NCBI GenBank assembly: GCA_029834535.1
Contig: JAQMWT010000323.1
Span: 1-64,000 of the forward strand
Source of the DNA: Chrysophaeum taylorii
Lineage: Eukaryota; Sar; Pelagophyceae; Pelagomonadales; Pelagomonadaceae
DNA: 64,000 bases
Direction of reading: 5' to 3'
Below the pieces are notes generated by a model. It was not told the DNA's origin and did not search any database. It saw nothing but the letters and a program-made list of their open reading frames with translations. How positions within the stretch are numbered: the stretch's first letter is position 1; every line of letters begins with the position of its first letter. A program made the translations under genes and the position numbers. Below are positions 1,357-32,171 of this stretch, piece by piece.

Positions 1357-4300
1357 ATGATCGTGGCGGGTCGGGTATTGCTTTTGGCGGTGGCGGCGGC
1401 GGAGTTGACAAACAGGTCGCAGCTGACGCTCGTGGTGAGCCAGCGCGTGGTGGGAGCGGTCTATCCCGTCAACGCTTCGGGGACCGAGTGCTCATGGGCA
1501 CGGTACAACGAAACGCCGTGCGAATGCCTGGGGGGCGGGGCGCGGCTCGCGGGGGTACTGTCGCGGGCCGAGGTCGCCCTGGACTCGGGGGGGTACTGGT
1601 ACGGGAGCGGTCTGTTTTACGACCAGTACGAGGGCGCGGCATCGGCGGCGGTGGCGCGGGCATCGGGGTATGGCGCGCGCGCGCTCCACTGGCTCGACTT
1701 CGTGATCGCGTGGCGGCCCCTGGAGGCCGAGCCCACGGGCGGGCGGGCCCTCGCGAGATTTTTGTCCGCGGTCGGCGACGGACTGCGGGCCGTTGCGACG
1801 AACCTCGATGTGGCGGACGACCCGTACCTAACCACCGAGCTGACGACGAAAATTGGTTTCGTCGAGCGCGGCGGCAAGACGATCGCGATTCTAGCGTTGC
1901 TCGACGCGAGGCGCATCGCGGAAGTGTCGCCCCACTACTCGGCCCGGTGCATGCCGTACGAGGAGGCGCTGACAGCGGCGATTGCGACGGCCCGCGACGC
2001 TGACTTCGTGGTTTTGTTTGTTTCTGGTATGCCCGAGAGGGACGTCTTCGAGCTAGTCGCCGCCGCCGAAGCGAGGAACGCGACCGAGGCGGAAGGGCTC
2101 CGGACGCTCGCACGCAAGTTTTTCGACATCGACGTGATTATTGTTGATGGCCGCGACACGCTCGGCGCGGCCCTGGGCGGCGCGGGTGTTGAGATGGTTG
2201 AGAACTTGGCAGGGGGGCGCACGGCTATCGTAGTGACCGACGACTCGAAACGCGGCGTGGCGACGTCCACGGTTAGGTACGACGGGTCGACATGGACGAC
2301 GGCAAACGAGATGCTCGACTGTCGCGTGGCCGAAAACGCGACGGTCCGGGCAAAGATCGACGCGTGGAAGTGGGAAATCGAGGCCAAGATGCGCGACGAG
2401 GTCGCTGGCGCGCTCGGCTTCGTTGCGACGTCTCTCGACGACGCACAACTTACGGACTTGGTATGCGACGCCGGAGCGTACTGGGCGCAGGCCGACATCG
2501 CCGTTGTGGCCGAGAGCGGCGCGCACGCCCCGTTGATTTCACCCCGCGTGCACGCCCAGGAGCTCCTCGAGGCTTTGCCGAACCTCGGTAAAGAACTCGT
2601 GTGGCTCCGCGTGCGGGGCTCGACGCTCCACGCGCTGTTGCCCCAAGCGATCGCATATCGTCCCGAGGGCGCGGTCCACGTGTCGAGATCCACGCGCGTG
2701 ACGTGGTATGTTGTCGACAACGGCGCGATTCTTTACGGGTCGGTAACTGTGAACGGAACCGAGATAGATGACGATGCGACTTACTCGGTCGTCGCGACCG
2801 TGAACGGTGTCGAGGAAACCTTCAGAGCGGTGGATCCGACGGTAACGTATGCGATACCGCTCGGCGTCTCGAGCTACGGCGCGGCCGCGGCCTACCTGCG
2901 CCTCTTCCACGGTACGACTGAAGATGCTCTGGATCCCGAAGCGGAGTACGCTCTGCGGCGGATCGAGCAGCTCGGCAACGTCCGGCTTGTCCGGGTCGCC
3001 TTGCTATGCGGAGACACCGTGAGCCGGCTTCAGCTGTGTGACCACGCCCTGCACGCCATCAGGCTGCTGAACGGCGATATTGAAGGCATCCCCGAATCTG
3101 ACGTGTCGCCGGTGCGCGTCGAACCGCACGTCGTCAACATCGGCTGCTCGGAAGGCCGAGCGCTCGAGGGACTAGCCAACCTCAGCCTCGCGACACAAAC
3201 ATCGTTTGACGCTGTCGTGACCGACTGCTCCGACGACGTGCGGGCGGTGTCGAGCATCGAAGGGCGGGCCAAGCTGAACGAGATCACGCGCGGGCTGCAG
3301 GGCTGGAATCATGTTGTCGTGTCGCCATCGGCGACGGCGCCGTCACTCGCCGACAACGACGCGTACCCGTACCTCGTGCGCCTCGCCACGGCATCGACCT
3401 TCAACGGACTCGCCGTCGCGGCGATGATGGCGGGCTACGGCTGGCACCTCGTCGCCGTCATCCACGACGACTCGTCCTTCGCAACTGAGGCAGCCCAGGC
3501 CTTTGTCGACAAGTTTCTCGCCGACGATCCTGCGAACAACCGCGTCCTCGGCAACGGTGCCTGCAAAGGACCGGTCTCATGTGCCCGTTCAGTCACGGGC
3601 ACCGACGGCGCGCCCGTCGGCATCGCATTTTCGCTGTCGGCCATGGATGACGGCCTCGTCAGCGCGAGCGAGATCCTCGACGCCGTCGATGCCCTCGGCG
3701 CAAAGATCGTTTATCTCTCCACCTATCAGAGAGTTCAAAGGATCATTTATGGTCAAGTTGCGCGCTCCGCGAAGCTGTACGGCCTGGGCTACGCCTGGAT
3801 CAACAGCCTTCCGTCGGAGTCGGCGGTCGTCGACGAGGATACGGGCATCGTAGACAACGACGCGGCCGACGGTCTCAGAGGTGCCCTAGGCTTCATCGAA
3901 CATACCCCGACCCTCGAAGATGGAACCATCACCTTTGGTTATTATTTCCTATGGGAAGCGGCCTCGCCGAGCTCAGGTAATTGCGTCTATCCCACCGTCT
4001 CCGACAAGGTTGACTTTTGTGACCTCGACGACGACCCATATACGACGCCGGATTACGCGCTCTTTTGGGTCGATGCCATGGCCGTCTACGCCTCGTCCCT
4101 CGAGGAGCTCATAGAGAGTACGAGAAATGTGTCGGCGATCCACGACCCTGCGATGGTGGTCAACGCCATCCTCAGCCGCGAAAATCTCGAGGGTGTTACC
4201 GGCACCATAACGCTCGATGCTTCGGGTGGCCGCCGCGGCAACTTTGATGGTCTCAACTTCCGCGTCGAGCAGAGCGTCACCACGAGCCGCCGTCGGCTCA

Positions 4301-6360
4301 TCGAGCTGTCGAAGGAAATCGCATCTTACCAAGAAATAGGGACGTATTTTTCGGCCGTCGACGTGTTCAACGTTACAGACGACGTCTACTTTCCTGGAGA
4401 CACGACAACGCCTCCCGCGGACAGTGACCCTGCCGCGACCAGCAACAATAAGAAGTCGGACTCGTTTCCGCAATATATTCTCTGGGCCGTTTATGCGCTC
4501 GTCGCTGTCCTCGTCGTCGCCGTCGCCTTCATCGCCTACTTGGTGACAAAGAATCGGAAGAAGCAAAAAACGCCTGACATTTACATAGCCGTGCGCGGTT
4601 ACAAGATTACCGAGCGCGGCTACGTGCTCGCCAAGGGCTTCGCACCGGAGATGTCACCTCGCGATGATCCGCCCGTGCATTTAGAGGAAAACACGCCATT
4701 AGTAGTGGAACCCAGACCCCGGACCTATTTCATTGACCGATGGGAATTCAGTGAAGATGATTCACGCGAGATGAATCAGTCGAACGACTGCGAGGAAAAC
4801 GACGACGACGACGAAGACGACGAATTGTGTGCGGCTAGCGATCCGAGCCTCGCTTCTTCGTGCCTCGCTTCTCTGTGGCGAGACTATGCCGACAAAGACC
4901 AGACCGAGATTTCGCACAGCTACCGCGACTGGCTCCATTCGAAGCATGCTCGCGCTGCCGCGGCCTCTTCTTCAGCGGGTCTGAGGCGCGTGTCAAGCGC
5001 TGCTTCTTCTGCGGCCAACAAGCATATGGTCTCGCTCGGCACCTATGAAGTGAACATGCGCGATATGCTCCACGTAGACAGAAGAACTGGCAAGGAACGA
5101 CGAGTGCGAAAAATCGGAAAGAGGGAAGTGCAGATGCGCTGGTTCTTCGGTGAAACGTGGTACAAGGTCGATGGGTGTTCCCCGGAGTTTCTACCAGACT
5201 TCGCGTTCAGCGTGAATCTCAAAGGCGACGAGGTCTGGAAACGCTTTCCCCCCGACGCCGAAGCCGAAGTCTCCGAGGCTTTCTGCTACTGGCTTAACAA
5301 CGATCGCAATGCCTCTGGCCAAATCTACTTTACCGATCACTTTGAGCTCACTCGGGCATCGGATGCGAACGCGCGAACTGGCTATGTCATCGACTTTGTC
5401 GAGATGATGCAGACCAAGTTATCGTCGTTTTTCAAACGAAAACTCGCAGTCGTCGTCGTGCCCGCGAATGTCGCACTTCCGGTATTGGTTGAAGAGGCCA
5501 AGGAGGAAGATTTAGGGGAATCAGAAACAATGACTGTCGACGTTACCGAATACACGGAGGTGCCAGATGAACTTCTTGGAAAAGACTTAATCGAGGAGCT
5601 CGTGCGCGGCGACCTCGTTGCGGTTAGTCCCAATCACAAGCCGTTGGATTTGGGGACCACCCATGGCGTCTGGGGTCGCGGAGCCGTCGTCGGCAGTACT
5701 GCCAAAGGCTGGTTCCCGATGGCGTGCGTCGACTTCAAGCCGCTCGAGAAACGCGTCGACACCCCGACGCTCTGGACGCTCAACAAGAAGGAGCACGTTC
5801 TCGACAAAGACTTAGACCGCGTCGAATGGGAGGACATCGTCGAAAGGCTCCCCAAGCTCGACATCGTCAGCATCACCCGAATTCAGGACCGTATTCGCTG
5901 GCGTGCCTACAACGCGGCGCTCAACAGTATACGCGAAGAAATCGACCGCGGCCCCTTGGTAGAAAATGTCCTCGGATACGCGGTCGACTGCGTCCTCGAG
6001 CATTGCCCTGTGTTCCACGGTACCGATCACGATAAGGCCGAGGCCATCACGAACACGGGCTTTGAACCGCAACTTGCTGACCTAGGAAGCAAGTTAGGCC
6101 GCGGCTCATACTTTGCAATAGAGCCCGCCCTCGCAGAGTTGTACGCGCATCCCGACGACGACGGTGTCTGCAACATCTTTGTCTGCCGCATTATCACTGG
6201 TTTCACGACCGAAGGTAAACAAGGAATCTCGGAGCCTGAGAAAGGTTATCATTCTACCACTGACGATAAACAAGCTATCTTCTGTATCTTCCACAAGACC
6301 CATGCCTACCCGCTCTACCGCGTGAGATTCAAGTACGCGGCTAAAACTCAAATTAACTAA
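1357..6360 (+). CDS. Transmembrane receptor-like mono-ADP-ribosyltransferase, copy 1
   Basis: 1,667 aa, one uninterrupted reading frame. Residues 1-19 are a signal peptide. Residues 20-540 resemble a 5'-nucleotidase (GGGARLAGVLSR, VATNLDV, IDVIIVDGRD), but the metal ligands are replaced, so it is probably a binding pseudoenzyme. Residues 545-970 resemble a type-1 periplasmic-binding/ANF-receptor domain (VVSPSATAPSLADNDAYPYL, LEGVTGTITLDASGG). Residues 1038-1063 form the single membrane helix, followed by KNRKKQK. Inside the cell: an acidic/Ser-rich linker, WWE-like domain 1256-1365 (YVIDFVEMMQTKLSSFFKR), SH3-like domain 1400-1462 (WGRGAVVGSTAKGWFP), and PARP catalytic domain 1480-1660 with His1554 (FHGT), Tyr1585 (GSYFA) and Ile1641 (IFCIF). 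An H-Y-I triad is typical of mono-ART PARPs such as PARP10/14. Inferred role: ligand-gated ADP-ribosylation at a membrane. Middle ectodomain 355-545 differs most from copies 2 and 3. Confidence 0.85.
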   Translation: MIVAGRVLLLAVAAAELTNRSQLTLVVSQRVVGAVYPVNASGTECSWARYNETPCECLGGGARLAGVLSRAEVALDSGGYWYGSGLFYDQYEGAASAAVARASGYGARALHWLDFVIAWRPLEAEPTGGRALARFLSAVGDGLRAVATNLDVADDPYLTTELTTKIGFVERGGKTIAILALLDARRIAEVSPHYSARCMPYEEALTAAIATARDADFVVLFVSGMPERDVFELVAAAEARNATEAEGLRTLARKFFDIDVIIVDGRDTLGAALGGAGVEMVENLAGGRTAIVVTDDSKRGVATSTVRYDGSTWTTANEMLDCRVAENATVRAKIDAWKWEIEAKMRDEVAGALGFVATSLDDAQLTDLVCDAGAYWAQADIAVVAESGAHAPLISPRVHAQELLEALPNLGKELVWLRVRGSTLHALLPQAIAYRPEGAVHVSRSTRVTWYVVDNGAILYGSVTVNGTEIDDDATYSVVATVNGVEETFRAVDPTVTYAIPLGVSSYGAAAAYLRLFHGTTEDALDPEAEYALRRIEQLGNVRLVRVALLCGDTVSRLQLCDHALHAIRLLNGDIEGIPESDVSPVRVEPHVVNIGCSEGRALEGLANLSLATQTSFDAVVTDCSDDVRAVSSIEGRAKLNEITRGLQGWNHVVVSPSATAPSLADNDAYPYLVRLATASTFNGLAVAAMMAGYGWHLVAVIHDDSSFATEAAQAFVDKFLADDPANNRVLGNGACKGPVSCARSVTGTDGAPVGIAFSLSAMDDGLVSASEILDAVDALGAKIVYLSTYQRVQRIIYGQVARSAKLYGLGYAWINSLPSESAVVDEDTGIVDNDAADGLRGALGFIEHTPTLEDGTITFGYYFLWEAASPSSGNCVYPTVSDKVDFCDLDDDPYTTPDYALFWVDAMAVYASSLEELIESTRNVSAIHDPAMVVNAILSRENLEGVTGTITLDASGGRRGNFDGLNFRVEQSVTTSRRRLIELSKEIASYQEIGTYFSAVDVFNVTDDVYFPGDTTTPPADSDPAATSNNKKSDSFPQYILWAVYALVAVLVVAVAFIAYLVTKNRKKQKTPDIYIAVRGYKITERGYVLAKGFAPEMSPRDDPPVHLEENTPLVVEPRPRTYFIDRWEFSEDDSREMNQSNDCEENDDDDEDDELCAASDPSLASSCLASLWRDYADKDQTEISHSYRDWLHSKHARAAAASSSAGLRRVSSAASSAANKHMVSLGTYEVNMRDMLHVDRRTGKERRVRKIGKREVQMRWFFGETWYKVDGCSPEFLPDFAFSVNLKGDEVWKRFPPDAEAEVSEAFCYWLNNDRNASGQIYFTDHFELTRASDANARTGYVIDFVEMMQTKLSSFFKRKLAVVVVPANVALPVLVEEAKEEDLGESETMTVDVTEYTEVPDELLGKDLIEELVRGDLVAVSPNHKPLDLGTTHGVWGRGAVVGSTAKGWFPMACVDFKPLEKRVDTPTLWTLNKKEHVLDKDLDRVEWEDIVERLPKLDIVSITRIQDRIRWRAYNAALNSIREEIDRGPLVENVLGYAVDCVLEHCPVFHGTDHDKAEAITNTGFEPQLADLGSKLGRGSYFAIEPALAELYAHPDDDGVCNIFVCRIITGFTTEGKQGISEPEKGYHSTTDDKQAIFCIFHKTHAYPLYRVRFKYAAKTQIN

Positions 6361-7860: not shown

Positions 7861-7954
7861 TAACATCTTCATTGATGTAATGGTAAAGTAAAGTAAAAAT
7901 AGGTGAAGTAAAGGATTTTGGTAATATCTTTACTACTAATTGGCAGATATGTAT

Positions 7955-8420
7955 GTTTGTTTGTTTTTTTGTTTGTTTTGTTTGTTTTGTTTGTTTTGTT
8001 TGTTTGTTTGTTTGTTTGTTTGTTTGTTTGTTTGTTTGTTTGTTTGTTTGTTTGTTTGTTTGTTTGTTTGTTTGTTTGTTTGTTTGTTTGTTTGTTTGTT
8101 TGTTTGTTTGTTTGTTTGTTTGTTTGTTTGTTTGTTTGTTTGTTTGTTTGTTTGTTTGTTTGTTTGTTTGTTTTTGTTTGTTTGTTTGTTTGTTTGTTTG
8201 TTTGTTTGTTTGTTTGTTTGTTTGTTTGTTTGTTTGTTTGTTTGTTTGTTTGTTTGTTTGTTTGTTTGTTTGTTTGTTTGTTTGTTTGTTTGTTTGTTTG
8301 TTTGTTTGTTTGTTTGTTTGTTTGTTTGTTTGTTTGTTTGTTTGTTTGTTTGTTTGTTTGTTTGTTTGTTTGTTTGTTTGTTTGTTTGTTTGTTGTGTTT
8401 GTTTGTTTGTTTGTTTGTTT
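7955..8420. repeat. (GTTT)n tetranucleotide array
   Basis: About 465 bp of almost pure TTTG/GTTT repeat with rare interruptions. It abuts TTTTTAAAGGTCGACTGCTAAG, the boundary of the LINE-type tail that follows. Shorter GTTT/GTCT runs sit at the same boundary at 20830-20870, 21470 and 21630. It is best read as an expanded 3'-tail repeat of a minus-strand LINE insertion. The three-frame CLFVCLFV translation is an artefact. Confidence 0.9.
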
Positions 8421-8590
8421 TTAAAGGTCGACTGCTAAGTGGGGGGTGTGTGTGTGGTGCATGAAGGATGTGGGTGGTTTTGTGGGGTAGGAGGGATGTG
8501 CCGGACGGGCGGAGATAAGTATGCGGGACCTAGTCGGGGTCATCGCCGAGTCGTGGGGCAGGCGAAGAGAGGACGGGCCCCACAATAATT
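8421..8590 (-). repeat. LINE-type 3' tail fragment
   Basis: Runs from AAAGGTCGACTGCTAAG through GACGGGCGGAGATAAGT to GACGGGCCCCACAA. It matches the tail of the better preserved LINE fragment at 20870-21455, minus strand, but has no coding part left. Confidence 0.55.
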
Positions 8591-9754: not shown

Positions 9755-9770
9755 TTTTTACTAAAAGGAT

Positions 9771-13569: not shown

Positions 13570-16500
13570 ATGATCGTGGCGGGTCGGGTATTGCTTTTGG
13601 CGGTGGCGGCGGCGGAGTTGACAAACAGGTCGCAGCTGACGCTCGTGGTGAGCCGGCGCGTGGTGGGAGCGGTCTATCCCGTCAACGCTTCGGGGACCGA
13701 GTGCTCATGGGCACGGTACAACGAAACGCCGTGCGAATGCCTGGGGGGCGGGGCGCGGCTCGCGGGGGTACTGTCGCGGGCCGAGGTCGCCCTGGACGCG
13801 GGGGGGTACTGGTACGGGAGCGGTCTGTTTTACGACCAGTACGAGGGCGCGGCATCGGCGGCGGTGGCGCGGGCATCTGGGTATGGCGCGCGCGCGCTCC
13901 ACTGGCTCGACTTCGTGATCGCGTGGCGGCCCCTGGAGGCCGAGCCCACGGGCGGGCGGGCCCTCGCGAGATTTTTATCCGCGGTCGGCGACGGACTGTG
14001 GGCCGTTGCGACGAACCTCGATGTGGCGGACGACCCGTACCTAACCACCGAGCTGACGACGAAAATTGGTTTCGTCGAGCGCGGCGGCAAGACGATCGCG
14101 ATTCTAGCGTTGCTCGACGCGAGGCGCATCGCGGAAGTGTCGCCCCACTACTCGGCCCGGTGCATGCCGTACGAGGAGGCGCTGACGGCGGCGATTGCGA
14201 CGGCCCGCGACGCTGACTTCGTGGTTTTGTTTGTTTCGGGCATGCCCGAGAGGGACGTCTTCGAGCTAGTCGCCGCCGCTGATGCGAGCGACGCGACCGA
14301 GGTTGATGGGCTCCGGGCGCTCGCGCGAAAATTTTTCGACATCGACGTGATCATCGTGGATGGCCGCGACGCGCTCGGCGCGGCGCTGGGCGGCGCGGGT
14401 GTTGAGATGGTTGAGAACTTGGCGGGGAGGCGCACAGCTATCGTAGTTACCGACGACTCGAAACGCGGCGTGGCGACGTCCACGGTCAGGTACGACGGGT
14501 CGACATGGACGACGGCAAACGAGATGCTCGACTGTCGCGTGGCCGAAAACGCGACGGTAAGGGCAAAGATCGACGCGTGGAAGTGGGAAATCGAGGCCAA
14601 GATGCGCGACGAGGTCGCGGGCGCGCTGGGCTTCGTTGCATCATCTCTCGACGAGGTACATCTTTCGGACTTGGTGTGCGACGCCGGAGCATACTGGGCC
14701 CAGGCCGACATGGCCTTTGTTGTTGAGAGCATCGTGCACGCCCCGTTGATTTCACCTCGCGTGCACGCTCAGGAGCTCCTCGAGGCCCTGCCTAACCTCA
14801 GCATAGATCTCGTGCGGCTCCGCGTACACGGCGCGGCGCTCAACGCGCTGTTACCGTTTGCGATCAGTCGTCCCGAGGGGGCGGTCCACGTGTCGAGATC
14901 CGCGCGCGTGACATGGTATGTCGTCGACACCGGCGCGGTTCTTTTCGGGGGGGTAACCTTGAATGGAACCAGTTTAGTAGGCGACGCGATGTACACGGTT
15001 GTCGTGGCCGTGGACGGGGGCGAAGAAGCCATCAGAGCGGTGGATCCAACGGCGACGCATGCGATACCCCTCGGCGTCTCGAGCTATGGCGCGGCTGCGG
15101 CCTACCTGCGCCTCTTCCACGATACGACGGAGGATGCTTTGGATCCAGAGGTGAACTACGCGGTGCAGCGGATCGAGAAGCTCGGTGACATCCGGCTTGT
15201 TCGGGTCGCCCTGCTATGCGGAGACACCGTGAGCCGGCTTCAGCTGTGTGACCACGCGCTGCACGCCATCAGGCTGCTGAACGGCGATATTGGTGGCTTC
15301 CCGGACACTGACGTGTCGCCGGTGCGCGTTGAACCGTACGTCGTCAACATCGGCTGCTCGGAAGGCCGAGCGCTCGAGGGACTCGCCAACCTCAGCCTCG
15401 CGACACAAACGTCATTCGACGCTGTCGTGACCGACTGCTCCGACGACGTGGGGGCGGTGTCGAGCATCGAAGGGCGGGCCAAGCTGAACGAGATCACGCT
15501 CGGGCTGCAGGGCTGGAACCATGTTGTCGTGTCGCCGTCGGCAACGGCGCCGTCGCTCGCCGACAACGACGCGTACCCGTACCTCGTGCGCCTCGCCACG
15601 GCATCGACCTTCAACGGACTCGCCGTTGCGGCGATGATGGCGGGCTACGGCTGGCACCTCGTTGCCGTCATCCACGACGACTCGTCCTTCGCAACTGAGG
15701 CAGCCCAAGCCTTCGTAGACAAGTTTCTCGCCGACGATCCTGCGAACAACCGCGTCCTCGGCAACGGTGCCTGCAAAGGACCGGTCTCGTGTGCCCGTTC
15801 AGTCACGGGCACCGACGGCGCGCCCGTAGGCATCGCATTTTCGCTGTCGGCCATGGACGACGGCCTCGTCAGCGCGAGCGAGATCCTCGACGCCGTCGAT
15901 GCCCTCGGCACAAAGATCGTTTATCTTTCCACCTACCAAAGAGTTCAAAGGATTATTTATGGTCAAGCTGCGCGCTCCGAAACGCTGTATGGCCTCGGCT
16001 ACGCTTGGATCAACAGCCTTCCGTCGGAGTCGGCGGTCGTCGACGAGGATACGGGCATCGTAGACAACGACGCGGCCGACGGTCTCAGAGGTGCCCTCGG
16101 CTTCATCGAACAAACCCCGACCCCCGAAGACGGAACTCTCACCCTTGGTTATTACAACCAATGGGAAGCGGCCTCGCCGAGCTCGGCGAACTGCGTCTAT
16201 CCCACCATCTCCGACAAGGTTGACTTTTGTGACCTCGACGACGACCCATATACGACGCCGGATTACGCGCTCTTTTGGGTCGATGCCATCGCCGTCTACG
16301 CCTCGTCCCTCGTGGCGCTCATAGAGAGTACGAAAAACGTGTCAGCGATCCACGACCCTGCGGTGGCTGTCAACGCCATCCTTAGCCGCGAAAATCTCGA
16401 GGGCGCTACTGGCTCTATAACGCTCGACGCTTCGGGCGGCCGCCGCGGCAACTTTCGAGGCCTCAACTTCCGCGTCAAGCAGAGCGTTACCACGAGCCGC

Positions 16501-18573
16501 CGTCGGCTCATCGAGCTGTCTTCGGAAAGCGCCTCTTACCAAGAAATAGGGACGTATTTTTCGGCCGTCGACGTGTTCAACGTTACGGACGACGTCTATT
16601 TTCCTGGAGACACGACAACGCCTCCCGCGGACAGTGACCCTACCGCGACCAGCAACAATAAGAAGTCGTCGGACTCCTTGCGGCAATATATTCTCTGGGC
16701 CGTTTATGCGCTCGTCGCTGTCCTCGTCGTCGCCGTCGCCTTCATCGCCTACTTGGTGACAAAGAATTGGAAGAAGCGAAAAACGCCTGACATTTACATA
16801 GCCGTGCGCGGCTACAAGATTACCGAGCGCGGCTACGTGCTCGCCAAGGGCTTCGCGCCGGAGATGTCACCTCGCGATGATACGCCCGTGCATTTAGAGG
16901 AAAACACGCCATTAGTAGTAGAACCCAGACCCCGGACGTATTTCATCGACCGATGGGAATTCAGTGAAGACGATTCACGCGAGATGAATCAGTCGAACGA
17001 CTGCGAGGAAAACGACGACGACGACGACGACGACGAATTGTGTGCGGCTAGCGATCCGAGCCTCGCTTCTTCGTGCCTCGCTTCTCTGTGGCGAGACTAT
17101 GCCGACAAAGACCAGACCGAGATTTCTCACAGCTACCGCGACTGGCTCCATTCGAAGCATGCTCGCGCTGCCGCGGCCTCTTCTTCAGCGGGTCTGAGGC
17201 GCGTGTCAAGCGCTGCTTCTTCTGCGGCCAACAAGCATATGGTCTCGCTCGGCACCTACGAAGTGAACATGCGCGATATGCTCCACGTTGACAGAAGAAC
17301 TGGCAAGGAACGACGAGTGCGAAAAATCGGAAAGAGGGAAGTGCAGATGCGCTGGTTCTTCGGTGAAACGTGGTACAAGGTCGATGGGTGTTCCCCGGAG
17401 TTTCTACCAGACTTCGCGTTCAGCGTGAATCTCAAAGGCGACGAGGTCTGGAAACGCTTTCCCCCCGACGCCGAAGCCGAAGTCTCCGAGGCTTTCTGCT
17501 ACTGGCTTAACAACGATCGCAATGCCTCTGGCCAAATCTACTTTACCGATCACTTTGAGCTCACTCGGGCATCGGATGCGAACGCGCGAACTGGCTATGT
17601 CATCGACTTTGTCGAGATGATGCAGACCAAGTTATCGTCGTTTTTCAAACGAAAACTCGCGGTCGTCGTCGTGCCCGCGAACGTCGCACTTCCGGCATTG
17701 GTTGAAGAGGCCAAGGAGGAAGATTTAGGGGAATCAGAAACAACGACTGTCGACGTTACCGAATACACGGAGGTGCCAGATGAACTTCTTGGAAAAGACT
17801 TAATCGAGGAGCTCGTGCGCGGCGACCTCGTTGCGGTTAGTCCCAATCACAAGCCGTTGGATTTGGGGACCACCCATGGCGTCTGGGGTCGCGGAGCCGT
17901 CGTCGGCAGTACTGCCAAAGGCTGGTTCCCGATGGCGTGCGTCGACTTCAAGCCGCTCGAGAAACGCGTCGACACCCCGACGCTCTGGACGCTCAACAAG
18001 AAGGAGCACGTTCTCGACAAAGACTTAGACCGCGTCGAATGGGAGGACATCATCGAAAGGCTCCCCAAGCTCGACATCGTCAGCATCACCCGAATTCAGG
18101 ACCGTATTCGCTGGCGTGCCTACAACGCGGCGCTCAACAGTATACGCGAAGAAATCGACCGCGGCCCCTTGGTAGAAAATGTCCTCGGATACGCGGTCGA
18201 CTGCGTCCTCGAGCATTGCCCTGTGTTCCACGGTACCGACCACGATAAGGCCGAGGCCATCACGAACACGGGCTTTGAACCGCAACTTGCTGACCTAGGA
18301 AGCAAGTTAGGCCGCGGCTCGTACTTTGCAATAGAGCCCGCCCTCGCAGAGTTGTACGCGCATCCCGACGACGACGGTGTCTGCAACATATTTGTCTGCC
18401 GCATTATCACTGGTTTCACGACCGAAGGTAAACAAGGAATCTCGGAGCCTGAGAAAGGTTATCATTCTACCACTGACGATAAACAAGCTATCTTCTGTAT
18501 CTTCCACAAGACCCATGCCTACCCGCTCTACCGCGTGAGATTCAAGTACGCGGCTAAAACTCAAATTAACTAA
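13570..18573 (+). CDS. Transmembrane receptor-like mono-ADP-ribosyltransferase, copy 2
   Basis: 1,667 aa, uninterrupted, same architecture as copy 1: signal peptide, degenerate 5'-nucleotidase-like domain, ANF-receptor-like domain, one membrane helix, WWE-like, SH3-like and PARP catalytic domains with the His (FHGT), Tyr (GSYFA) and Ile (IFCIF) triad intact. It is a mosaic. Ectodomain markers (SRRVV, LDAGG, DASDATEVDG, NGTSLVGDAMYTVVV, SSDSLRQ) agree with copy 3. The cytoplasmic part (LAKGFAPEMSP, FSEDDSREMNQ, LASSCLASLW, terminal AAKTQIN) and the 3' flank agree with copy 1. The switch lies in roughly 100 bp around the membrane helix (16690-16790). Its upstream DNA is crowded by two hAT insertions, so its expression may differ. 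Intact frame suggests a functional or very young gene. Confidence 0.85.
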   Translation: MIVAGRVLLLAVAAAELTNRSQLTLVVSRRVVGAVYPVNASGTECSWARYNETPCECLGGGARLAGVLSRAEVALDAGGYWYGSGLFYDQYEGAASAAVARASGYGARALHWLDFVIAWRPLEAEPTGGRALARFLSAVGDGLWAVATNLDVADDPYLTTELTTKIGFVERGGKTIAILALLDARRIAEVSPHYSARCMPYEEALTAAIATARDADFVVLFVSGMPERDVFELVAAADASDATEVDGLRALARKFFDIDVIIVDGRDALGAALGGAGVEMVENLAGRRTAIVVTDDSKRGVATSTVRYDGSTWTTANEMLDCRVAENATVRAKIDAWKWEIEAKMRDEVAGALGFVASSLDEVHLSDLVCDAGAYWAQADMAFVVESIVHAPLISPRVHAQELLEALPNLSIDLVRLRVHGAALNALLPFAISRPEGAVHVSRSARVTWYVVDTGAVLFGGVTLNGTSLVGDAMYTVVVAVDGGEEAIRAVDPTATHAIPLGVSSYGAAAAYLRLFHDTTEDALDPEVNYAVQRIEKLGDIRLVRVALLCGDTVSRLQLCDHALHAIRLLNGDIGGFPDTDVSPVRVEPYVVNIGCSEGRALEGLANLSLATQTSFDAVVTDCSDDVGAVSSIEGRAKLNEITLGLQGWNHVVVSPSATAPSLADNDAYPYLVRLATASTFNGLAVAAMMAGYGWHLVAVIHDDSSFATEAAQAFVDKFLADDPANNRVLGNGACKGPVSCARSVTGTDGAPVGIAFSLSAMDDGLVSASEILDAVDALGTKIVYLSTYQRVQRIIYGQAARSETLYGLGYAWINSLPSESAVVDEDTGIVDNDAADGLRGALGFIEQTPTPEDGTLTLGYYNQWEAASPSSANCVYPTISDKVDFCDLDDDPYTTPDYALFWVDAIAVYASSLVALIESTKNVSAIHDPAVAVNAILSRENLEGATGSITLDASGGRRGNFRGLNFRVKQSVTTSRRRLIELSSESASYQEIGTYFSAVDVFNVTDDVYFPGDTTTPPADSDPTATSNNKKSSDSLRQYILWAVYALVAVLVVAVAFIAYLVTKNWKKRKTPDIYIAVRGYKITERGYVLAKGFAPEMSPRDDTPVHLEENTPLVVEPRPRTYFIDRWEFSEDDSREMNQSNDCEENDDDDDDDELCAASDPSLASSCLASLWRDYADKDQTEISHSYRDWLHSKHARAAAASSSAGLRRVSSAASSAANKHMVSLGTYEVNMRDMLHVDRRTGKERRVRKIGKREVQMRWFFGETWYKVDGCSPEFLPDFAFSVNLKGDEVWKRFPPDAEAEVSEAFCYWLNNDRNASGQIYFTDHFELTRASDANARTGYVIDFVEMMQTKLSSFFKRKLAVVVVPANVALPALVEEAKEEDLGESETTTVDVTEYTEVPDELLGKDLIEELVRGDLVAVSPNHKPLDLGTTHGVWGRGAVVGSTAKGWFPMACVDFKPLEKRVDTPTLWTLNKKEHVLDKDLDRVEWEDIIERLPKLDIVSITRIQDRIRWRAYNAALNSIREEIDRGPLVENVLGYAVDCVLEHCPVFHGTDHDKAEAITNTGFEPQLADLGSKLGRGSYFAIEPALAELYAHPDDDGVCNIFVCRIITGFTTEGKQGISEPEKGYHSTTDDKQAIFCIFHKTHAYPLYRVRFKYAAKTQIN

Positions 18574-20807: not shown

Positions 20808-20869
20808 ATATGTCTTAACTACTAATCGACAGATGTTTGTTTATTTGTTTGTTTGTTTGTCTGTTTGTC

Positions 20870-21455: not shown

Positions 21456-21479
21456 GAGGTATTCGGAGTGTTTGTCTGT

Positions 21480-21653: not shown

Positions 21654-22624
21654 AAGTGCAGGCCAGTAAGTTCACCTAGTCCCAATCTCTAACCCCAGTA
21701 AGTTCACCTGGTCCCAGTAAGTTTCGTTTGAGTTCACCTGGTCAGTAAGTTCACCTGGCTCACACCAACTCCTTTGAGCTCGTCGCTCTCGCCTCCGCCA
21801 ATCTAAGCTGCTTTGATCCGCACGCGCCGCCAACCTTTGAGTTTACTCTAAAAACCCTTTACTCTAAAAACCCCAGTATGTTCACCTGGTCCCAGTTTCA
21901 CCTGGTCACTCAGTTCACCTAGTCCCAATCTCAAACCCCAATAAGTTCACGTAGTCCCAGCAAGTTCACCTATAGTGCGCGTGTAGACGCCGGGAGAGGG
22001 CTTATCGGTATTGCGCAGCACGTGTGGGGTAGGGTGGAGTCGTCGACCCAGATGAGTATATCCTCGGGGATGCCGATCGACAGAGAGCCACGTAGAGCTG
22101 GACGTGGCAGAAGACGGGCTTGGGAAAGAGGACGCCGACCTCGCGGGGCGTCTGGCCCTGGCTCTTGTTGATCGTTTGGCGTAGGCGGGCCTTAAGGGAT
22201 ACAGGTTGGAGGAGCCTCGGTGACAACGACACGATCAATCATGTATCTGTTAACGTTGCAGTGGCCGTGCGACGGGTCGAGGTTGCGAAGACTTTAAGCT
22301 CGCGATCAAAGTCAGCATGCCGTTGGTTGTCAGGGAGTAGAAACTCGACAGTAAAGAGCGAGGCGTCGTCTTCCGACCCAACCTAGTCGGCCGAAAAGAA
22401 GTCCGACGCCTCGTCTCCGGGAAAAAAAGGCCGAGGTCATGCGCACGTTGTCAGCATCGACAACATCGTTTCGACGGGGCGTGAGAATGGCGCGCTGAAA
22501 GAGCCGCCGCGGGTCGTGGAAATAGTCTGCGAGGTCGCCGTAGACGGCTTGGAGGATCACTGTCTGGCTCTCGCGCCTACTTGATCCTTACTCTCGCGCC
22601 TACCTGATCCTTACCCTAAATCGG
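21654..22624 (-). mobile_element. Helitron-related repeat, copy D (inverted)
   Basis: Minus orientation; AGTGCAGGCCAGTAAGTTCACC end, minisatellite with a doubled TTTACTCTAAAAACCC segment, then the interrupted PIF1-helicase fragment (TINKSQGQTPREVGVLFPKP), ending in CTTACCCTAAATCG. It faces copy E head to head across about 86 bp. Confidence 0.75.
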
Positions 22625-22710
22625 GGGACAAACAAACAGACAAACAAACAAACATCTGTCGATTAGTAGTTAGGATGTCGACTGCTAAGAGGGGGGGTGT
22701 GTGTGGAGCC

Positions 22711-23681
22711 CTCGATTTAGGGTAAGGATCATGTAGGCCCACGAGACAGGCATTGATCCTCCAAGCCGTCCACGGCGACCTCGCAGACTATTTCCACGAC
22801 CCGCGGCGGCTCTTTCAGCGCGCCATTCTCACGCCCCGTCGAAACGATGTTGTCGATGCTGACAACGTGCGCATGACCGCGGCCTTTTTTTCACGGAGAC
22901 GAGGCGACGGAGTTCTTTTCGGCCGACTAGGTTGGGTCGGAAGACGACGCCGCGCTCTTTACAGTCGAGTTTTCGACTCCCTGACAACCAACGGCATGCT
23001 GACTTTGATCGCGAGCTTAAGGTCTTCGCAACCTCGACCCGTCGCACGGCCACTGCAACGGTACCAGATACATGATCGATCGTGTCGTGTCACCGAGGCT
23101 CCTCCAACCTGTATCCGTTAAGGCCCGCCTACGCCAAACGATCAACAAGAGCCAGGGCCAGACGCCCCGCGAGGTCCGTGTCCTCTTGCCCACAAGCCCG
23201 TCTACTGCCACGTCCAGCTCTACGTGGCTCTTTGTCGATCGGCAACCCCGAGAATATGCTCTTCTGAGTCGACGACTCCACCCTACCTCACACGTGCTCC
23301 GCAATACCGATAAGCCCCCTCCCGGCGTCTACGCGCGCACTGTAGGTGAACTTACTGGGACCAGGTGAACTTGCTGGGGTTTGAGATTGGGACTAGGTGA
23401 ATATAGTGACCAGGTGAACTTACTGGGACCAGGTGAACTTACTGGGGTTTTTAGAGTAAACTCAAAGGTTAGCGGGGTGTGCGGATCAAAGCAGCTTAGA
23501 TTGGCGGAGGCGAGAGCGACGAGCTCGAAGGAGTGGTGTGAGCACGACTGGGTTTACGCCGAACTTACTGGGGTTAGAGATTTGGACTAGGTGAACTTAC
23601 TGACCAGGTGAACTTACTGAGACCAGGTGAACTTACTGGGGTTAGAGATTGGGACTAGGTGAACTTACTGGCCTGCACTTG
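22711..23681 (+). mobile_element. Helitron-related repeat, copy E
   Basis: Plus orientation, from CTCGATTTAGGGTAAGGATC to GGCCTGCACTTG, with interrupted PIF1-helicase fragment and minisatellite. With copy D it forms an inverted pair with arms near 0.95 kb. The 86-bp gap (22625-22710) holds a (GTTT)-type run and GTCGACTGCTAAGAGGGGGG. It lies directly upstream of receptor copy 3. Confidence 0.75.
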
Positions 23682-23823: not shown

Positions 23824-26800
23824 ATGATCATGGCGGGTCGGGTATTGCTTTTGGCGGTGGCGGCGGCGGAGTTAACAAACAGGTCGCAGCTGACGCTCGT
23901 GGTGAGCCGGCGCGTGGTGGGAGCGGTCTATCCCGTCAACGCTTCGGGGACCGAGTGCTCATGGGTACGGTACAACGAAACGCCGTGCGAATGTCTGGGG
24001 GGCGGGGCGCGGCTCGCGGGGGTACTGTCGCGGGCCGAGGTCGCCCTGGACGCGGGGGGGTACTGGTACGGGAGCGGTCTGTTTTACGACCAGTACGAGG
24101 GCGCGGCATCGGCGGCGGTGGCGCGGGCATCTGGGTATGGCGCGCGCGCGCTCCACTGGCTCGACTTCGTGATCGCGTGGCGGCCCCTGGAGGCCGAGCC
24201 CACGGGCGGGCGGGCCCTCGCGAGATTTTTGTCCGCGGTCGGCGACGGACTGCGGGCCGTTGCGACGAACCTCGATGTGGCGGACGACCCGTACCTAACC
24301 ACCGAGCTGACGACGAAAATTGGTTTCGTCGAGCGCGGCGGCAAGACGATCGCGATTCTAGCGTTGCTCGACGCGAGGCGCATCGCGGAAGTGTCGCCCC
24401 ACTACTCGGCCCGGTGCATGCCGTACGAGGAGGCGCTGACGGCGGCGATTGCGACGGCCCGCGACGCTGACTTCGTGGTTTTGTTTGTTTCGGGCATGCC
24501 CGAGAGGGACGTCTTCGAGCTAGTCGCCGCCGCTGATGCGAGCGACGCGACCGAGGTTGATGGGCTCCGGGCGCTCGCGCGAAAATTTTTCGACATCGAC
24601 GTGATCATCGTGGATGGCCGCGACGCGCTCGGCGCGGCGCTGGGCGGCGCGGGTGTTGAGATGGTTGAGAACTTGGCGGGGAGGCGCACGGCTATCGTAG
24701 TTACCGACGACTCGAAACGCGGTGTGGCGACGTCCACGGTCAGGTACGACGGGTCGACATGGACGACGGCAAACGAGATGCTCGACTGTCGCGTGGCCGA
24801 AAACGCGACGGTAAGGGCAAAGATCGACGCGTGGAAGTGGGAAATCGAGGCCAAGATGCGTGACGAGGTCGCGGGGGCGCTGGGCTTCGTTGCATCGTCT
24901 CTCGACGAGGTGCATCTTTCGGACTTGGTGTGCGACGCCGGAGCATACTGGGCCCAGGCCGACATGGCCTTTGTTGTTGAGAGCATCGTGCACGCCCCGT
25001 TGATTTCACCTCGCGTGCACGCTCAGGAGCTCCTCGAGGCCCTACCTAACCTCGGCATAGATCTCGTGCGGCTCCGCGTACACGGCGCGTCGCTCAACGC
25101 GCTGTTGCCCTTTGCGATCAGTCGTCCCGAGGGGGCGGTCCACGTGTCGAGATCCGCGCGCGTGACATGGTATGTCGTCGACACCGGCGCGGTTCTTTTC
25201 GGGGGGGTAACCTTGAATGGAACCAGTTTAGTAGGCGACGCGATGTACACAGTTGTCGTGGCCATGGACGGGGGCGAGGAAGCCATCAGAGCGGTGGATC
25301 CAACGGCGACGCATGCGATACCCCTCGGCGTCTCGAGCTATGGCGCGGCTGCGGCCTACCTGCGCCTCTTCCACGATACGACGGAGGATGCTTTGGATCC
25401 CGAGGTGAACTACGCGGTGCAGCGTATCGAGAAGCTCGGTGACATCCGGCTTGTTCGGGTCGCCCTGCTATGCGGAGACACCGTGAGCCGGCTTCAGCTG
25501 TGTGACCACGCGCTGCACGCCATCAGGCTGCTGAACGGCGATATCAGTGGCTTCCCGGACACTGACGTGTCGCCGGTGCGCGTTGAACCGTACGTTGTCA
25601 ACATCGGCTGCTCGGAAGGCCGAGCGCTCGAGGGACTCGCCAATCTCAGCCTCGCGACACAAACATCGTTCGACGCTGTCGTGACCGACTGCTCCGACGA
25701 CGTGGGGGCGGTGTCGAGCATCGAAGGACGGGCCAAGCTGAACGAGGTCACGCACGGGCTGCAGGGCTGGAACCATGTTGTCGTGTCGCCGTCGGCAACG
25801 GCGCCGTCGCTCGCCGACAACGACGCGTACCCGTACCTCGTGCGCCTCGCCACGGCATCGACCTTCAACGGACTCGCCGTTGCGGCGATGATGGCGGGCT
25901 ACGGCTGGCACCTCGTTGCCGTCATCCACGACGACTCGTCCTTCGCAACTGAGGCAGCCCAAGCCTTCGTAGACAAGTTTCTCGCCGACGATCCTGCGAA
26001 CAACCGCGTCCTCGGCAACGGTGCCTGCAAAGGACCGGTCTCATGTGCCCGTTCAGTCACGGGCACCGACGGCGCGCCCGTCGGCATCGCATTTTCGCTG
26101 TCGGCCATGGACGACGGCCTCGTCAGCGCGAGCGAGATCCTCGACGCCGTCGATGCCCTCGGCACAAAGATCGTTTATCTCTCCACCTACCAAAGAGTTC
26201 AAAGGATTATTTATGGTCAAGCTGCGCGCTCCGAAACGCTGTATGGCCTCGGCTACGCTTGGATCAACAGCCTTCCGTCGGAGTCGGCGGTCGTCGACGA
26301 GGATACGGGCATCGTAGACAACGACGCGGCCGACGGTCTCAAAGGTGCCCTCGGCTTCATCGAACAAACCCCGACCCCCGAAGACGGAACTCTCACCCTT
26401 GGTTATTACAACCAATGGGAAGCGGCCTCGCCGAGCTCGGCGAACTGCGTCTATCCCACCGTCTCCGACAAGGTTGACTTTTGTGACCTCGACGACGACC
26501 CATTTACGACGCCGGATTACGCGCTCTTTTGGGTCGATGCCATCGCCGTCTACGCCTCGTCCCTCGTTGCGCTCATAGAGAGTACGAAAAACGTGTCGTC
26601 GATCCACGACCCTGCGGTGGCTGTCAACGCCATCCTTAGCCGCGAAAATCTCGAGGGCGCTACTGGCTCTATAACGCTCGACGCTTCGGGCGGCCGCCGC
26701 GGCAACTTTCGAGGCCTCAACTTCCGCGTCAAGCAGAGCGTCACCACGAGCCGCCGTCGGCTCATCGAGCTGTCTTCGGAAAGCGCCTCTTACCAAGAAA

Positions 26801-28845
26801 TAGGGACGTATTTTTCGGCCGTCGACGTGTTCAACGTTACGGCCGACGTCTATTTTCCAGGAGACACGACAACACCTCCAGCGGACAGCGACCCTGCCGC
26901 GACCAGCAACAATAAGAAGTCGTCGGACTCCTTGCGGCAATACATTCTCTGGGCCGTTTATGCGCTCGTCGCTTTCCTCGTCGTCGCCGTCGTCTTCATC
27001 GCCTACTTGGTGAAAAAGAATCGGAAGAAGCGAAAAACGCCCGACATTTACATTGCCGTACGCGGCTACAAAATCAGCGAGCGCGGCTACGTGCTCGCCG
27101 ATGGTATCGCGCCGGAGATGTCACCTCGCGATGATCCGCCCGTGTATTTAGAGGAAAGCACAACATTAGTTATGGAACCCAAACCCCGGGCCTATTTCAT
27201 AGACCGATGGGAATTTTGTGAAGATGATTCGTGCGCGATGAATCAATCGAGCGACTGCTGGGAAAACGACGACGACTTGTGTGCGCCTCGCGACTCGAAT
27301 CTCGGTTCTCCGGGCCTCGGTTCTCCGGGCCTCGGTTCTCCGGACCTCGGTTCTCCGTGGCGGTACTACGCCGACAAAGACCAGACCGAGCTTTCGCACA
27401 GCTACCGCTACTGGCTCCATTCGAAGCACGCTCGCGCTGCCGCGGCCTCTCCTTCGGCGGGTCTGACTCGGGTGTCAAGCAATGCTTCTTCTGCGACCAA
27501 CAAGCATATGGTCTCGCTCGGCACCTACGAAGTGAACATGCGCGATATGCTCCACGTTGACAGAAGAACTGGGAAGGAACAACGAGTGCGAAAAATTGGA
27601 AAAAGGGAAGTGCAGATGCGCTGGTTCTTCGGTGAAACGTGGTACAAGGTCGATGGGTGTTCCCCGGATTTTCTACCAGACTTCGCGTTCAGCGTGAATC
27701 TCAAAGGCGACGAGGTCTGGAAACGCTTTCCCCCCGACGCCGAAGCCGAAGTCTCAGAGGCTTTCTGCTACTGGCTTAACAACGATCGCAATGCCTCTGG
27801 CCAAATCTACTTTACCGATCACTTTGAGCTCACTCGGGCATCGGATGCGAACGCGCGAACTGGCTATGTCATCGACTTTGTCGAGATGATGCAGACCAAG
27901 TTATCGTCGTTTTTCAAACGAAAACTCGCGGTCGTCGTCGTGCCCGCGAACGTCGCACTTCCGGCATTGGTTGAAGAGGCCAAGGGGGAAGATTTAGTGG
28001 AATCAGAAACAATGACTGTCGACGTTACCGAATACACCGAGGTGCCATATGAACTTCGTGGAAAAGACTTAATCGAGGAGCTCGTGCGCGGCGACCTCAT
28101 CGCGGTTAAACCCAATCACAAGCCGTTAGATTTGGGGACCACCCATGGCGTCTGGGGTCGCGGAGCCGTCGTCGGCAGTACTGCCAAAGGCTGGTTCCCG
28201 ATGGCGTGCGTCGACTTCAAGCCGCTCGAGAAACGCGTCGACACCCCGACGCTCTGGACGCTTAACGAGAAGGAGCACGTCCTCGACAAAGACTTAGACC
28301 GCGTCGAATGGGAGGACATCGTCGAAAGGCTCCCCAAGCTCGACATCGTCAGCATCACCCGAATTCAGGACCGTATTCGCTGGCGTGCCTACAACGCGGC
28401 GCTCAACAGTATACGCGAAGAAATCGACCGCGGCCCCTTGGTAGAAAATGTCCTCGGATACGCGGTCGACTGCGTCCTCGAGCATTGCCCTGTGTTCCAC
28501 GGTACCGACCACGATAAGGCCGAGGCCATCACGAACACGGGCTTTGAACCACAACTTGCTGACCTAGGAAGCAAGTTAGGCCGCGGCTCGTACTTTGCAA
28601 TAGAGCCCGCCCTCGCAGAGTTGTACGCGCATCCCGACGACGACGGCGTCTGCAACATCTTTGTCTGCCGCATTATCACTGGTTTCACAACCGAAGGTAA
28701 ACAAGGAATCTCGGAGCCTGAGCAAGGTTATCATTCTACCACTGACGATAAACAAGCTATCTTCTGTATCTTCCACAAGACCCATGCCTACCCGCTCTAC
28801 CGCGTGAGATTCAAATACGTCTTTGAACGTCAAGATACCTACTAG
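23824..28845 (+). CDS. Transmembrane receptor-like mono-ADP-ribosyltransferase, copy 3
   Basis: 1,673 aa, uninterrupted, same order of parts as copies 1 and 2, with His (FHGT), Tyr (GSYFA) and Ile (IFCIF) of the PARP-type active site preserved. The ectodomain is nearly that of copy 2. The juxtamembrane linker is the most different of the three: a shortened acidic run (ENDDDLC) and a 15-bp tandem repeat (27300-27357) that encodes GLGSPGLGSPDLGSP. It ends in VFERQDTY rather than AAKTQIN. A second ATG two codons downstream (MIMAGRV) is an equally good start for the signal peptide. The WWE-like, SH3-like and catalytic parts are otherwise conserved, with changes confined mostly to the linker, which fits purifying selection on the enzyme or recent conversion between copies. 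Confidence 0.85.
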   Translation: MIMAGRVLLLAVAAAELTNRSQLTLVVSRRVVGAVYPVNASGTECSWVRYNETPCECLGGGARLAGVLSRAEVALDAGGYWYGSGLFYDQYEGAASAAVARASGYGARALHWLDFVIAWRPLEAEPTGGRALARFLSAVGDGLRAVATNLDVADDPYLTTELTTKIGFVERGGKTIAILALLDARRIAEVSPHYSARCMPYEEALTAAIATARDADFVVLFVSGMPERDVFELVAAADASDATEVDGLRALARKFFDIDVIIVDGRDALGAALGGAGVEMVENLAGRRTAIVVTDDSKRGVATSTVRYDGSTWTTANEMLDCRVAENATVRAKIDAWKWEIEAKMRDEVAGALGFVASSLDEVHLSDLVCDAGAYWAQADMAFVVESIVHAPLISPRVHAQELLEALPNLGIDLVRLRVHGASLNALLPFAISRPEGAVHVSRSARVTWYVVDTGAVLFGGVTLNGTSLVGDAMYTVVVAMDGGEEAIRAVDPTATHAIPLGVSSYGAAAAYLRLFHDTTEDALDPEVNYAVQRIEKLGDIRLVRVALLCGDTVSRLQLCDHALHAIRLLNGDISGFPDTDVSPVRVEPYVVNIGCSEGRALEGLANLSLATQTSFDAVVTDCSDDVGAVSSIEGRAKLNEVTHGLQGWNHVVVSPSATAPSLADNDAYPYLVRLATASTFNGLAVAAMMAGYGWHLVAVIHDDSSFATEAAQAFVDKFLADDPANNRVLGNGACKGPVSCARSVTGTDGAPVGIAFSLSAMDDGLVSASEILDAVDALGTKIVYLSTYQRVQRIIYGQAARSETLYGLGYAWINSLPSESAVVDEDTGIVDNDAADGLKGALGFIEQTPTPEDGTLTLGYYNQWEAASPSSANCVYPTVSDKVDFCDLDDDPFTTPDYALFWVDAIAVYASSLVALIESTKNVSSIHDPAVAVNAILSRENLEGATGSITLDASGGRRGNFRGLNFRVKQSVTTSRRRLIELSSESASYQEIGTYFSAVDVFNVTADVYFPGDTTTPPADSDPAATSNNKKSSDSLRQYILWAVYALVAFLVVAVVFIAYLVKKNRKKRKTPDIYIAVRGYKISERGYVLADGIAPEMSPRDDPPVYLEESTTLVMEPKPRAYFIDRWEFCEDDSCAMNQSSDCWENDDDLCAPRDSNLGSPGLGSPGLGSPDLGSPWRYYADKDQTELSHSYRYWLHSKHARAAAASPSAGLTRVSSNASSATNKHMVSLGTYEVNMRDMLHVDRRTGKEQRVRKIGKREVQMRWFFGETWYKVDGCSPDFLPDFAFSVNLKGDEVWKRFPPDAEAEVSEAFCYWLNNDRNASGQIYFTDHFELTRASDANARTGYVIDFVEMMQTKLSSFFKRKLAVVVVPANVALPALVEEAKGEDLVESETMTVDVTEYTEVPYELRGKDLIEELVRGDLIAVKPNHKPLDLGTTHGVWGRGAVVGSTAKGWFPMACVDFKPLEKRVDTPTLWTLNEKEHVLDKDLDRVEWEDIVERLPKLDIVSITRIQDRIRWRAYNAALNSIREEIDRGPLVENVLGYAVDCVLEHCPVFHGTDHDKAEAITNTGFEPQLADLGSKLGRGSYFAIEPALAELYAHPDDDGVCNIFVCRIITGFTTEGKQGISEPEQGYHSTTDDKQAIFCIFHKTHAYPLYRVRFKYVFERQDTY

Positions 28846-32140: not shown

Positions 32141-32171
<31 letters not shown>

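What the first reader, a model, noticed from the sequence alone, without database searches (positions are those of the whole stretch)
1357..28845. Three tandem receptor-type ADP-ribosyltransferases
Seen: three long, uninterrupted frames, each with a signal peptide, two ligand-binding-like ectodomains, one membrane helix, then WWE-like, SH3-like and PARP-type catalytic parts with the H-Y-I residues in place. Known: WWE plus PARP is an intracellular pairing that binds poly-ADP-ribose and modifies proteins; ANF-receptor ectodomains normally sit on guanylyl cyclases, GPCRs or kinases. Inference: here the sensor is wired straight to mono-ADP-ribosylation, a receptor class I do not recognise. This is the strongest candidate for an undescribed system in the window.
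Basis: partly seen in the sequence, partly recalled or inferred. Interest (0 to 1): 0.92.

Follow-up and report, generated by a model that had tools for sequence, protein, structure and literature searches.

The report
Membrane receptors with ADP-ribosylating PARP tails
Three neighbouring genes, probably from a pelagophyte alga, each encode a cell-surface-type sensor joined through one membrane helix to an internal PARP-type enzyme domain, a receptor design that I found in no paper I could search and that would tie an outside signal directly to ADP-ribosylation inside the cell.

Summary
Three intact ORFs (1667, 1667, 1673 codons) sit at the stated coordinates. Each encodes a hydrophobic N-terminus, a 5'-nucleotidase-like domain, an ANF/GABA-B-type ligand-binding domain, one strong membrane helix, WWE, SH3 and a PARP domain with H1554-Y1585-I1641, the PARP10-type triad of mono-ADP-ribosyltransferases. 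Sequence profiles support every domain; fold searches support the nucleotidase, ANF and PARP parts. Eight further proteins share the ANF-to-PARP design: five from the pelagophyte Chrysophaeum taylorii, three from unnamed sources, two of which lack the nucleotidase part. So it is not a chance fusion. The first ectodomain was misread: it is a 5'-nucleotidase that has lost metal-binding and catalytic residues. Copy 2 is a mosaic: outside half like copy 3, inside half like copy 1, with the switch near residue 1008, just before the membrane helix. Ten paper searches and passages of two PARP surveys gave no description of an ANF-PARP receptor. Activity, ligand, topology and location are untested, and the window's own genome could not be searched. 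I read it as an undescribed class of receptor enzyme: known parts, new wiring.

The parts
1357..6360 (+). copy 1, whole receptor (1667 aa)
13570..18573 (+). copy 2, whole receptor (1667 aa); ectodomain like copy 3, cytoplasmic half like copy 1
23824..28845 (+). copy 3, whole receptor (1673 aa)
1357..1419 (+). copy 1 putative signal peptide (about residues 1-21)
   Evidence: hydrophobic N-terminus only; no dedicated program run
1420..2796 (+). copy 1 5'-nucleotidase-like domain (residues 22-480; Pfam C-terminal part 360-480), catalytic residues lost
3106..4260 (+). copy 1 ANF / GABA-B-type ligand-binding domain (residues 584-968)
4477..4533 (+). copy 1 membrane helix (residues 1041-1059)
   Evidence: mean hydropathy 2.91, five K/R in the 15 residues after it
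4726..5124 (+). copy 1 first WWE domain (about residues 1124-1256, limits by eye)
   Evidence: alignment with relatives; Pfam WWE has 2 stretches in copies 1 and 2, 1 in copy 3
5125..5466 (+). copy 1 second WWE domain (about residues 1257-1370, limits by eye), Q1352 and R1361 kept in 9 of 9 rows of A3
5560..5745 (+). copy 1 SH3 domain (residues 1402-1463)
   Evidence: profile match
5854..6336 (+). copy 1 PARP catalytic domain (Pfam 1500-1640, taken to 1660), triad H1554 (6016-6018), Y1585 (6109-6111), I1641 (6277-6279)
16591..16593 (+). approximate place in copy 2 of the strongest recombination point (near residue 1008), between ectodomain and membrane helix
   Evidence: maximum chi-square 187, reached in 0 of 2000 shuffles
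130..1087 (.). dispersed repeat upstream of copy 1; a copy in the same orientation lies upstream of copy 3 (22713-23681)

Best explanation
A receptor ADP-ribosyltransferase. The protein sits once across a membrane. Outside, an ANF (GABA-B-like, clamshell) domain binds a ligand, and a dead 5'-nucleotidase domain serves as a second binding or dimerisation module. Ligand binding rearranges a dimer, as in natriuretic-peptide receptors, and brings or frees the cytoplasmic PARP domain, which attaches single ADP-ribose units from NAD+ to nearby proteins chosen through the SH3 domain; the paired WWE domains bind the ADP-ribose mark and hold or reinforce the signal. Shown: domain order, folds of the nucleotidase, ANF and PARP parts, conserved triad, one strong membrane helix, recurrence in relatives, purifying selection. 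Inferred: topology, ligand binding, dimer switch, enzymatic activity, substrates, role of WWE and SH3.
Against: No activity, ligand, topology or expression data. The cytoplasmic model is weak (mean pLDDT 54.5) and the ectodomain model moderate (63.9), each from 9 sequences; the 5'-nucleotidase superpositions have TM about 0.4 by target length and rmsd near 19-20 A, so the model does not reproduce the crystal arrangement of its two lobes. WWE1 of the window rows has H where six of nine rows have Q. CTAYLR_007242 shows no strong membrane helix as annotated; P0010 and P0006 lack a normal PARP end, and the I of P0004 is aligned next to a gap; I suspect gene models, without proof. Pfam cut-offs are missed by WWE in P0004, PARP in P0006 and SH3 wherever it is listed. 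The usual nucleotide-stacking Phe is not kept, so the ligand class is open.
Confidence: 0.62

Rival explanations
1. Receptor scaffold without catalysis: the PARP domain binds partners or ADP-ribose but no longer transfers it, as proposed for plant RCD1/SRO proteins.
For: A survey says biochemical analysis of A. thaliana RCD1 suggested that SROs lack transferase activity although they hold a PARP domain (PMC4245714, passage). Activity was not testable here. dN/dS of the PARP part is not low in every pair: 0.31 (copies 1-3) and 0.39 (2-3).
Against: H and Y are kept in 9 of 9 rows of A3 and I in 8; dN/dS of the PARP part stays below 1 in all three pairs (0.09, 0.31, 0.39; 4, 17 and 17 nucleotide differences, so rough); nearest solved relatives are PARP14, 15, 10 and 12, active mono-transferases (recalled).
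Confidence: 0.17
2. Internal-membrane sensor: the protein sits in the ER or a vacuole, the ANF and nucleotidase part faces the lumen, and the PARP reports lumenal state, as PARP16 does for ER stress.
For: A hydrophobic N-terminus and one membrane helix do not tell the plasma membrane from the ER. PARP16 is a membrane PARP (PMC4245714, passage); its ER-stress role is recalled.
Against: ANF domains usually sit on cell-surface receptors (established knowledge); 7-8 N-glycosylation sequons before the helix in each window copy fit a surface receptor but equally a lumenal domain.
Confidence: 0.15
3. Notch-like release: ligand binding leads to cleavage at the membrane, and the WWE-SH3-PARP part travels elsewhere in the cell.
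For: Long low-complexity linkers flank the helix in several relatives.
Against: No cleavage site or localisation signal was tested; nothing specific points to it.
Confidence: 0.06

Closest known systems
Receptor guanylyl cyclases (natriuretic peptide receptors)
   Same: ANF ectodomain, one membrane helix, enzyme inside (family features recalled)
   Different: No cyclase or kinase-like domain listed at E up to 1; a PARP takes that place
GABA-B and other class C GPCRs
   Different: One strong membrane helix in the window copies instead of seven, and an enzyme tail
WWE-PARP mono-transferases (PARP7, 11, 12, 14 and relatives)
   Same: WWE plus PARP; nearest solved catalytic domains PARP14, 15, 10, 12; H-Y-I as in PARP10 (recalled)
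   Different: Those are intracellular without a ligand-binding ectodomain (recalled); here a hydrophobic N-terminus, two ectodomains, a helix and an SH3 are added
PARP16 and scattered transmembrane PARPs of sponge and Rhizaria
   Same: PARP on a membrane protein (passages of PMC4245714)
   Different: No ANF or nucleotidase ectodomain is mentioned in those passages; PARP16 has its helix at the C-terminal end
Ecto-5'-nucleotidases (CD73, UshA)
   Same: Sequence and fold likeness of the first ectodomain
   Different: Metal-binding and catalytic residues lost in the six sequences aligned, two of them near-identical window copies, and the substrate-stacking Phe429 replaced

Membership tests
PARP / ARTD superfamily | PARP catalytic domain above the Pfam cut-off | tested here: met
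   35.8-36 bits against 26.7 in 3 of 3 window copies
PARP / ARTD superfamily | H-Y-[E or variant] triad | tested here: met
   H-Y-I; H and Y in 9 of 9 rows of A3, I in 8 of 9
PARP / ARTD superfamily | NAD+-dependent ADP-ribose transfer | not testable with these tools
   needs an assay
PARP Clade 3 (PARP7, 9-15) | groups with Clade 3 in a catalytic-domain tree | tested here: inconclusive
   best sequence and fold matches are PARP14, 15, 10 and 12, with tankyrases lower, but no tree with other PARPs was built
Receptor guanylyl cyclase | ANF ectodomain and one membrane helix | tested here: met
   (helix by hydropathy only)
Receptor guanylyl cyclase | cytoplasmic guanylyl cyclase domain | tested here: not met
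   none listed at E up to 1 in 3 of 3 copies
Class C GPCR | seven membrane helices | tested here: not met
   one strong helix in 3 of 3 window copies; weaker stretches fall in the ANF part or at the end of WWE2
Ecto-5'-nucleotidase | metal and catalytic residues (UshA D41, H43, D84, N116, H117; numbers recalled, letters checked) | tested here: not met
   H43, D84, N116 and H117 kept in 0 of 6 sequences, D41 in 1 of 6 (P0010); D120, H217, H252 and Q254 could not be aligned reliably. The CD73 and venom alignments also lack D84, N116 and H117, though D84 falls on a different residue there
WWE domain family | Pfam WWE match, with the ADP-ribose-contacting Q and R (recalled from RNF146) | tested here: met
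   WWE above the Pfam cut-off in 3 of 3 copies; Q1352 and R1361 of WWE2 in 9 of 9 rows; WWE1 has Q in 6 of 9 rows, not in the window rows
SH3 domain family | SH3 profile match | tested here: met
   profile of 7 sequences against PDB: intersectin-2 7.3e-5, Shank3 2.4e-4. Against: Pfam SH3_2 is not listed for the window copies, P0004, P0005 or P0010, and is below its cut-off in P0006-P0009
Ecto-ART (ARTC, extracellular transferases) | R-S-E catalytic motif facing outside (recalled) | tested here: not met
   the transferase is of H-Y-I type on the predicted inner side, and no ARTC family is listed

The most novel reading that the evidence does not exclude
Pelagophyte algae have a class of receptor enzymes, receptor ADP-ribosyltransferases, that converts an outside ligand straight into NAD+-consuming protein modification, with a dead ectonucleotidase reused as a sensor module. 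Tandem copies trade sensor and effector halves by recombination next to the membrane helix and so make new input-output pairs.
Probability: 0.55. Interest if true: 0.9.

Novelty: new variant of a known kind. Interest (0 to 1): 0.8.

Why it matters
Known receptor enzymes are kinases, phosphatases or cyclases (established knowledge). One whose output is ADP-ribosylation would add a signalling currency at the membrane and link outside cues directly to NAD+ use. [quoted passage not shown] taylorii has at least five annotated receptor-PARP proteins. It is directly testable with a recombinant tail and NAD+.

Tried and rejected
Nucleotide or NAD+ sensing by the first ectodomain: attractive because PARP uses NAD+, but the metal ligands and the stacking Phe429 are not kept, so I do not claim it. 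An amino-acid ligand from the GABA-B likeness: not claimed, as the match is of fold, and by sequence only of one stretch of about 65 residues. Chance fusion or assembly artefact: rejected, because the copies differ, much of the DNA between them is not shared in register, and the ANF-to-PARP order recurs on other contigs.

Viral or prokaryotic relatives: pattern scans gave 21 stretches in viral contigs and 62 in genome contigs, none a relative by tblastn; each scan used only two short peptide patterns, so this is a weak negative. The VIA second looks mainly tested 540-1025 of the ectodomain and 416-598 of the tail; WWE and SH3 rest on sequence. hhalign of the nucleotidase alignment against UshA gave nothing useful in global mode and a weak local match (E 0.022, probability 2.2), so the residue comparison with UshA rests on MAFFT and on HMMER's alignments to CD73, venom and Thermus enzymes. 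NCBIfam gave nothing for P0001 and two very weak nucleotidase matches for P0008.

The three homologue searches scored only 7985, 7988 and 7989 candidates, those sharing most words, and only proteins of similar length, so absence elsewhere is not shown.

Full report
What is there. Copies 2 and 3 are 94% and 91% identical to copy 1 in protein. Pairwise they differ at 242, 330 and 146 nucleotides; dN/dS over the whole gene is 0.27 (1-2), 0.32 (1-3) and 0.33 (2-3). tblastn of copy 1 against the window finds these three places only. In the protein collection the 90% cluster of copy 1 has three members on one contig of 162,599 bases.

Anatomy. Copy 1 has, in order, a hydrophobic N-terminus, a 5'-nucleotidase C-terminal domain (360-480, 2.8e-9), an ANF receptor domain (584-968, 2.3e-20), a strong hydrophobic helix (1041-1059) followed by a K/R-rich stretch, WWE (two stretches, 5e-6) and PARP (6.5e-9). 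In copies 2 and 3 the 5'-nucleotidase match is below its cut-off (7.7e-4 and 7.6e-4); copy 3 has one WWE stretch, and its N-terminus misses my hydropathy threshold. I ran no dedicated signal-peptide or topology program. Pfam's SH3_2 is not listed for the window copies, P0004, P0005 or P0010, and stays below its cut-off in P0006-P0009.

Catalytic parts. The PARP triad is H1554-Y1585-I1641. In the nine rows of alignment A3 (copy 1, copy 3 and seven relatives) H and Y are kept in nine, I in eight; the ninth, P0010, ends before that strand, and in P0004 the I stands next to a gap. P0011 and copy 2, not in that alignment, show the same motifs. H-Y-I is the PARP10-type triad linked to mono-ADP-ribosylation (recalled; a 2014 survey lists a paper on substrate-assisted catalysis limiting PARP10 to mono-transfer, reference entry seen). 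In WWE2, Q1352 and R1361, which I take to correspond to poly-ADP-ribose contacts in RNF146 (recalled), are kept in nine of nine rows; WWE1 has H in the two window rows, L in P0004 and Q in the other six.

The dead nucleotidase. Against CD73, snake-venom and Thermus enzymes and E. coli UshA, the metal-binding and catalytic motifs are gone. In six sequences (window copies 1 and 2, P0004, P0008, P0009, P0010; copy 3, P0005 and P0011 were not included) UshA H43, D84, N116 and H117 are kept in none and D41 in one (P0010). D120, H217, H252 and Q254 could not be aligned with confidence. The adenine-stacking Phe429 is Leu, Ile or Thr. Yet residues 1-200 are well conserved: 40-47% per hundred residues against P0004, where the rest of the ectodomain gives 27-35%. 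Against P0008 they reach 40-42%, no more than the ANF part with 42-46% (two pairs compared). So this module is likely reused for binding or dimerisation, not for hydrolysis.

Relatives. Three searches gave eight further proteins: CTAYLR_007243 and 007242 (consecutive locus numbers), 008075, 008929 and 008111 of Chrysophaeum taylorii, and P0006 (ENA), P0007 (JGI) and P0009 (source 'lgn') without organism names. The five C. taylorii proteins and P0009 have nucleotidase, ANF and PARP matches; P0006 and P0007 have the ANF domain, helix, WWE and a PARP match but no nucleotidase part (for P0011 only the collection's own Pfam labels were seen). Shortfalls: the PARP score of P0006 (21.6 bits) is below the cut-off, its last strand being replaced by unrelated sequence; WWE in P0004 (20.4) is just below; CTAYLR_007242 shows no strong membrane helix. 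In a tree of all eleven, the window copies form one group and C. taylorii 007242/007243 another, joined with support 100/99, but the program warns that this join is between long branches. The window's three copies and the C. taylorii pair therefore seem to be separate tandem duplications.

Mosaic copies. Of 354 informative sites, 211 join copies 2 and 3, 116 join copies 1 and 2, and 27 join 1 and 3. The first kind rules from residue 201 to about 1030, the second from 1031 to the end; the first 200 residues hold only nine such sites. The best single break is near residue 1008, just before the helix at 1041 (maximum chi-square 187, reached in 0 of 2000 shuffles). Shuffling treats sites as exchangeable, so the figure is a guide. 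Divergence of copy 1 from the others peaks at 351-550, the nucleotidase C-domain, at 77-86% identity. Either gene conversion homogenised parts, or copy 2 arose from an exchange; both mean that sensor and effector halves have been recombined.

How it most likely works. By analogy with ANF receptors that carry a cyclase, ligand binding outside should move a dimer and activate the PARP inside; SH3 would select partners, and WWE would read the mark. Only anatomy and conservation are shown. Rivals are a non-catalytic PARP scaffold, a sensor of an internal compartment, and Notch-like release.

What is known. Ten paper searches (one search returned none) over the held open-access library showed no ANF-PARP receptor; apart from four papers I saw listings only. 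Of two PARP surveys I read passages. [quoted passage not shown] PMC4245714 corrects that for some algae (T. oceanica, E. siliculosus, Chondrus crispus) and mentions transmembrane PARPs in sponge and Rhizaria, with H_lectin among the unusual domains of the Rhizaria proteins, and PARP16's C-terminal helix. In the C. taylorii genome paper PMC10366177 a word search of the main text for receptor, ADP-ribos, PARP, signal and intron gave no occurrence; the Aureococcus transcriptome paper PMC4109616 has only an ADP-ribosylation factor. Subscription journals and preprints are not covered.

Verdict. The architecture is real, recurrent and, as far as searched, undescribed. All parts are known and the principle of an enzyme-tailed ANF receptor is known; the output is new. 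I therefore call it a new variant of a known kind, while holding that 'a new class of receptor enzyme' is the likelier reading if the tail proves active.

Noticed in passing
130-1087, 8877-9755, 19895-20809, 21654-22675, 22713-23681, 61770-62827, 62849-63999: A dispersed repeat of about 0.9-1.1 kb in at least seven places on both strands, about 72-96% alike in the pieces listed; two copies lie 0.1-0.3 kb upstream of receptor copies 1 and 3. Arms 20202-20809 and 22752-23359 form a 98% inverted repeat. No Pfam match to four ORFs tested; a short ORF there reminded me of PIF1/Helitron helicase (recalled, not confirmed).
   Followed up: partly
43770-54275: One open frame of 3501 aa on the - strand, made largely of repeats (44170-52700), with a C-terminal Peptidase_S74 (endosialidase chaperone) domain at 2.6e-14 and an RCC1-like match far below its cut-off.
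   Followed up: partly
41616-43371: MatE (multidrug efflux family) matches in two overlapping + frames, 41616-43067 and 42256-43371: an intron, a frameshift in the sequence, or a broken gene.
   Followed up: no
30382-32241: An isopropylmalate/citramalate-synthase-like gene (HMGL-like 1.4e-45, LeuA_dimer 5.5e-18), an ordinary neighbour of the array.
   Followed up: no
38504-41170: A - strand frame with a RhoGEF domain (5.3e-31).
   Followed up: no
7918-8464: A simple tandem repeat that reads as a long VCLF array in three frames, between receptor copies 1 and 2.
   Followed up: no
59934-61454: One + frame joins a leucine carboxyl methyltransferase-like part (8.4e-16) to a GNAT acetyltransferase part (7.8e-12).
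   Followed up: no
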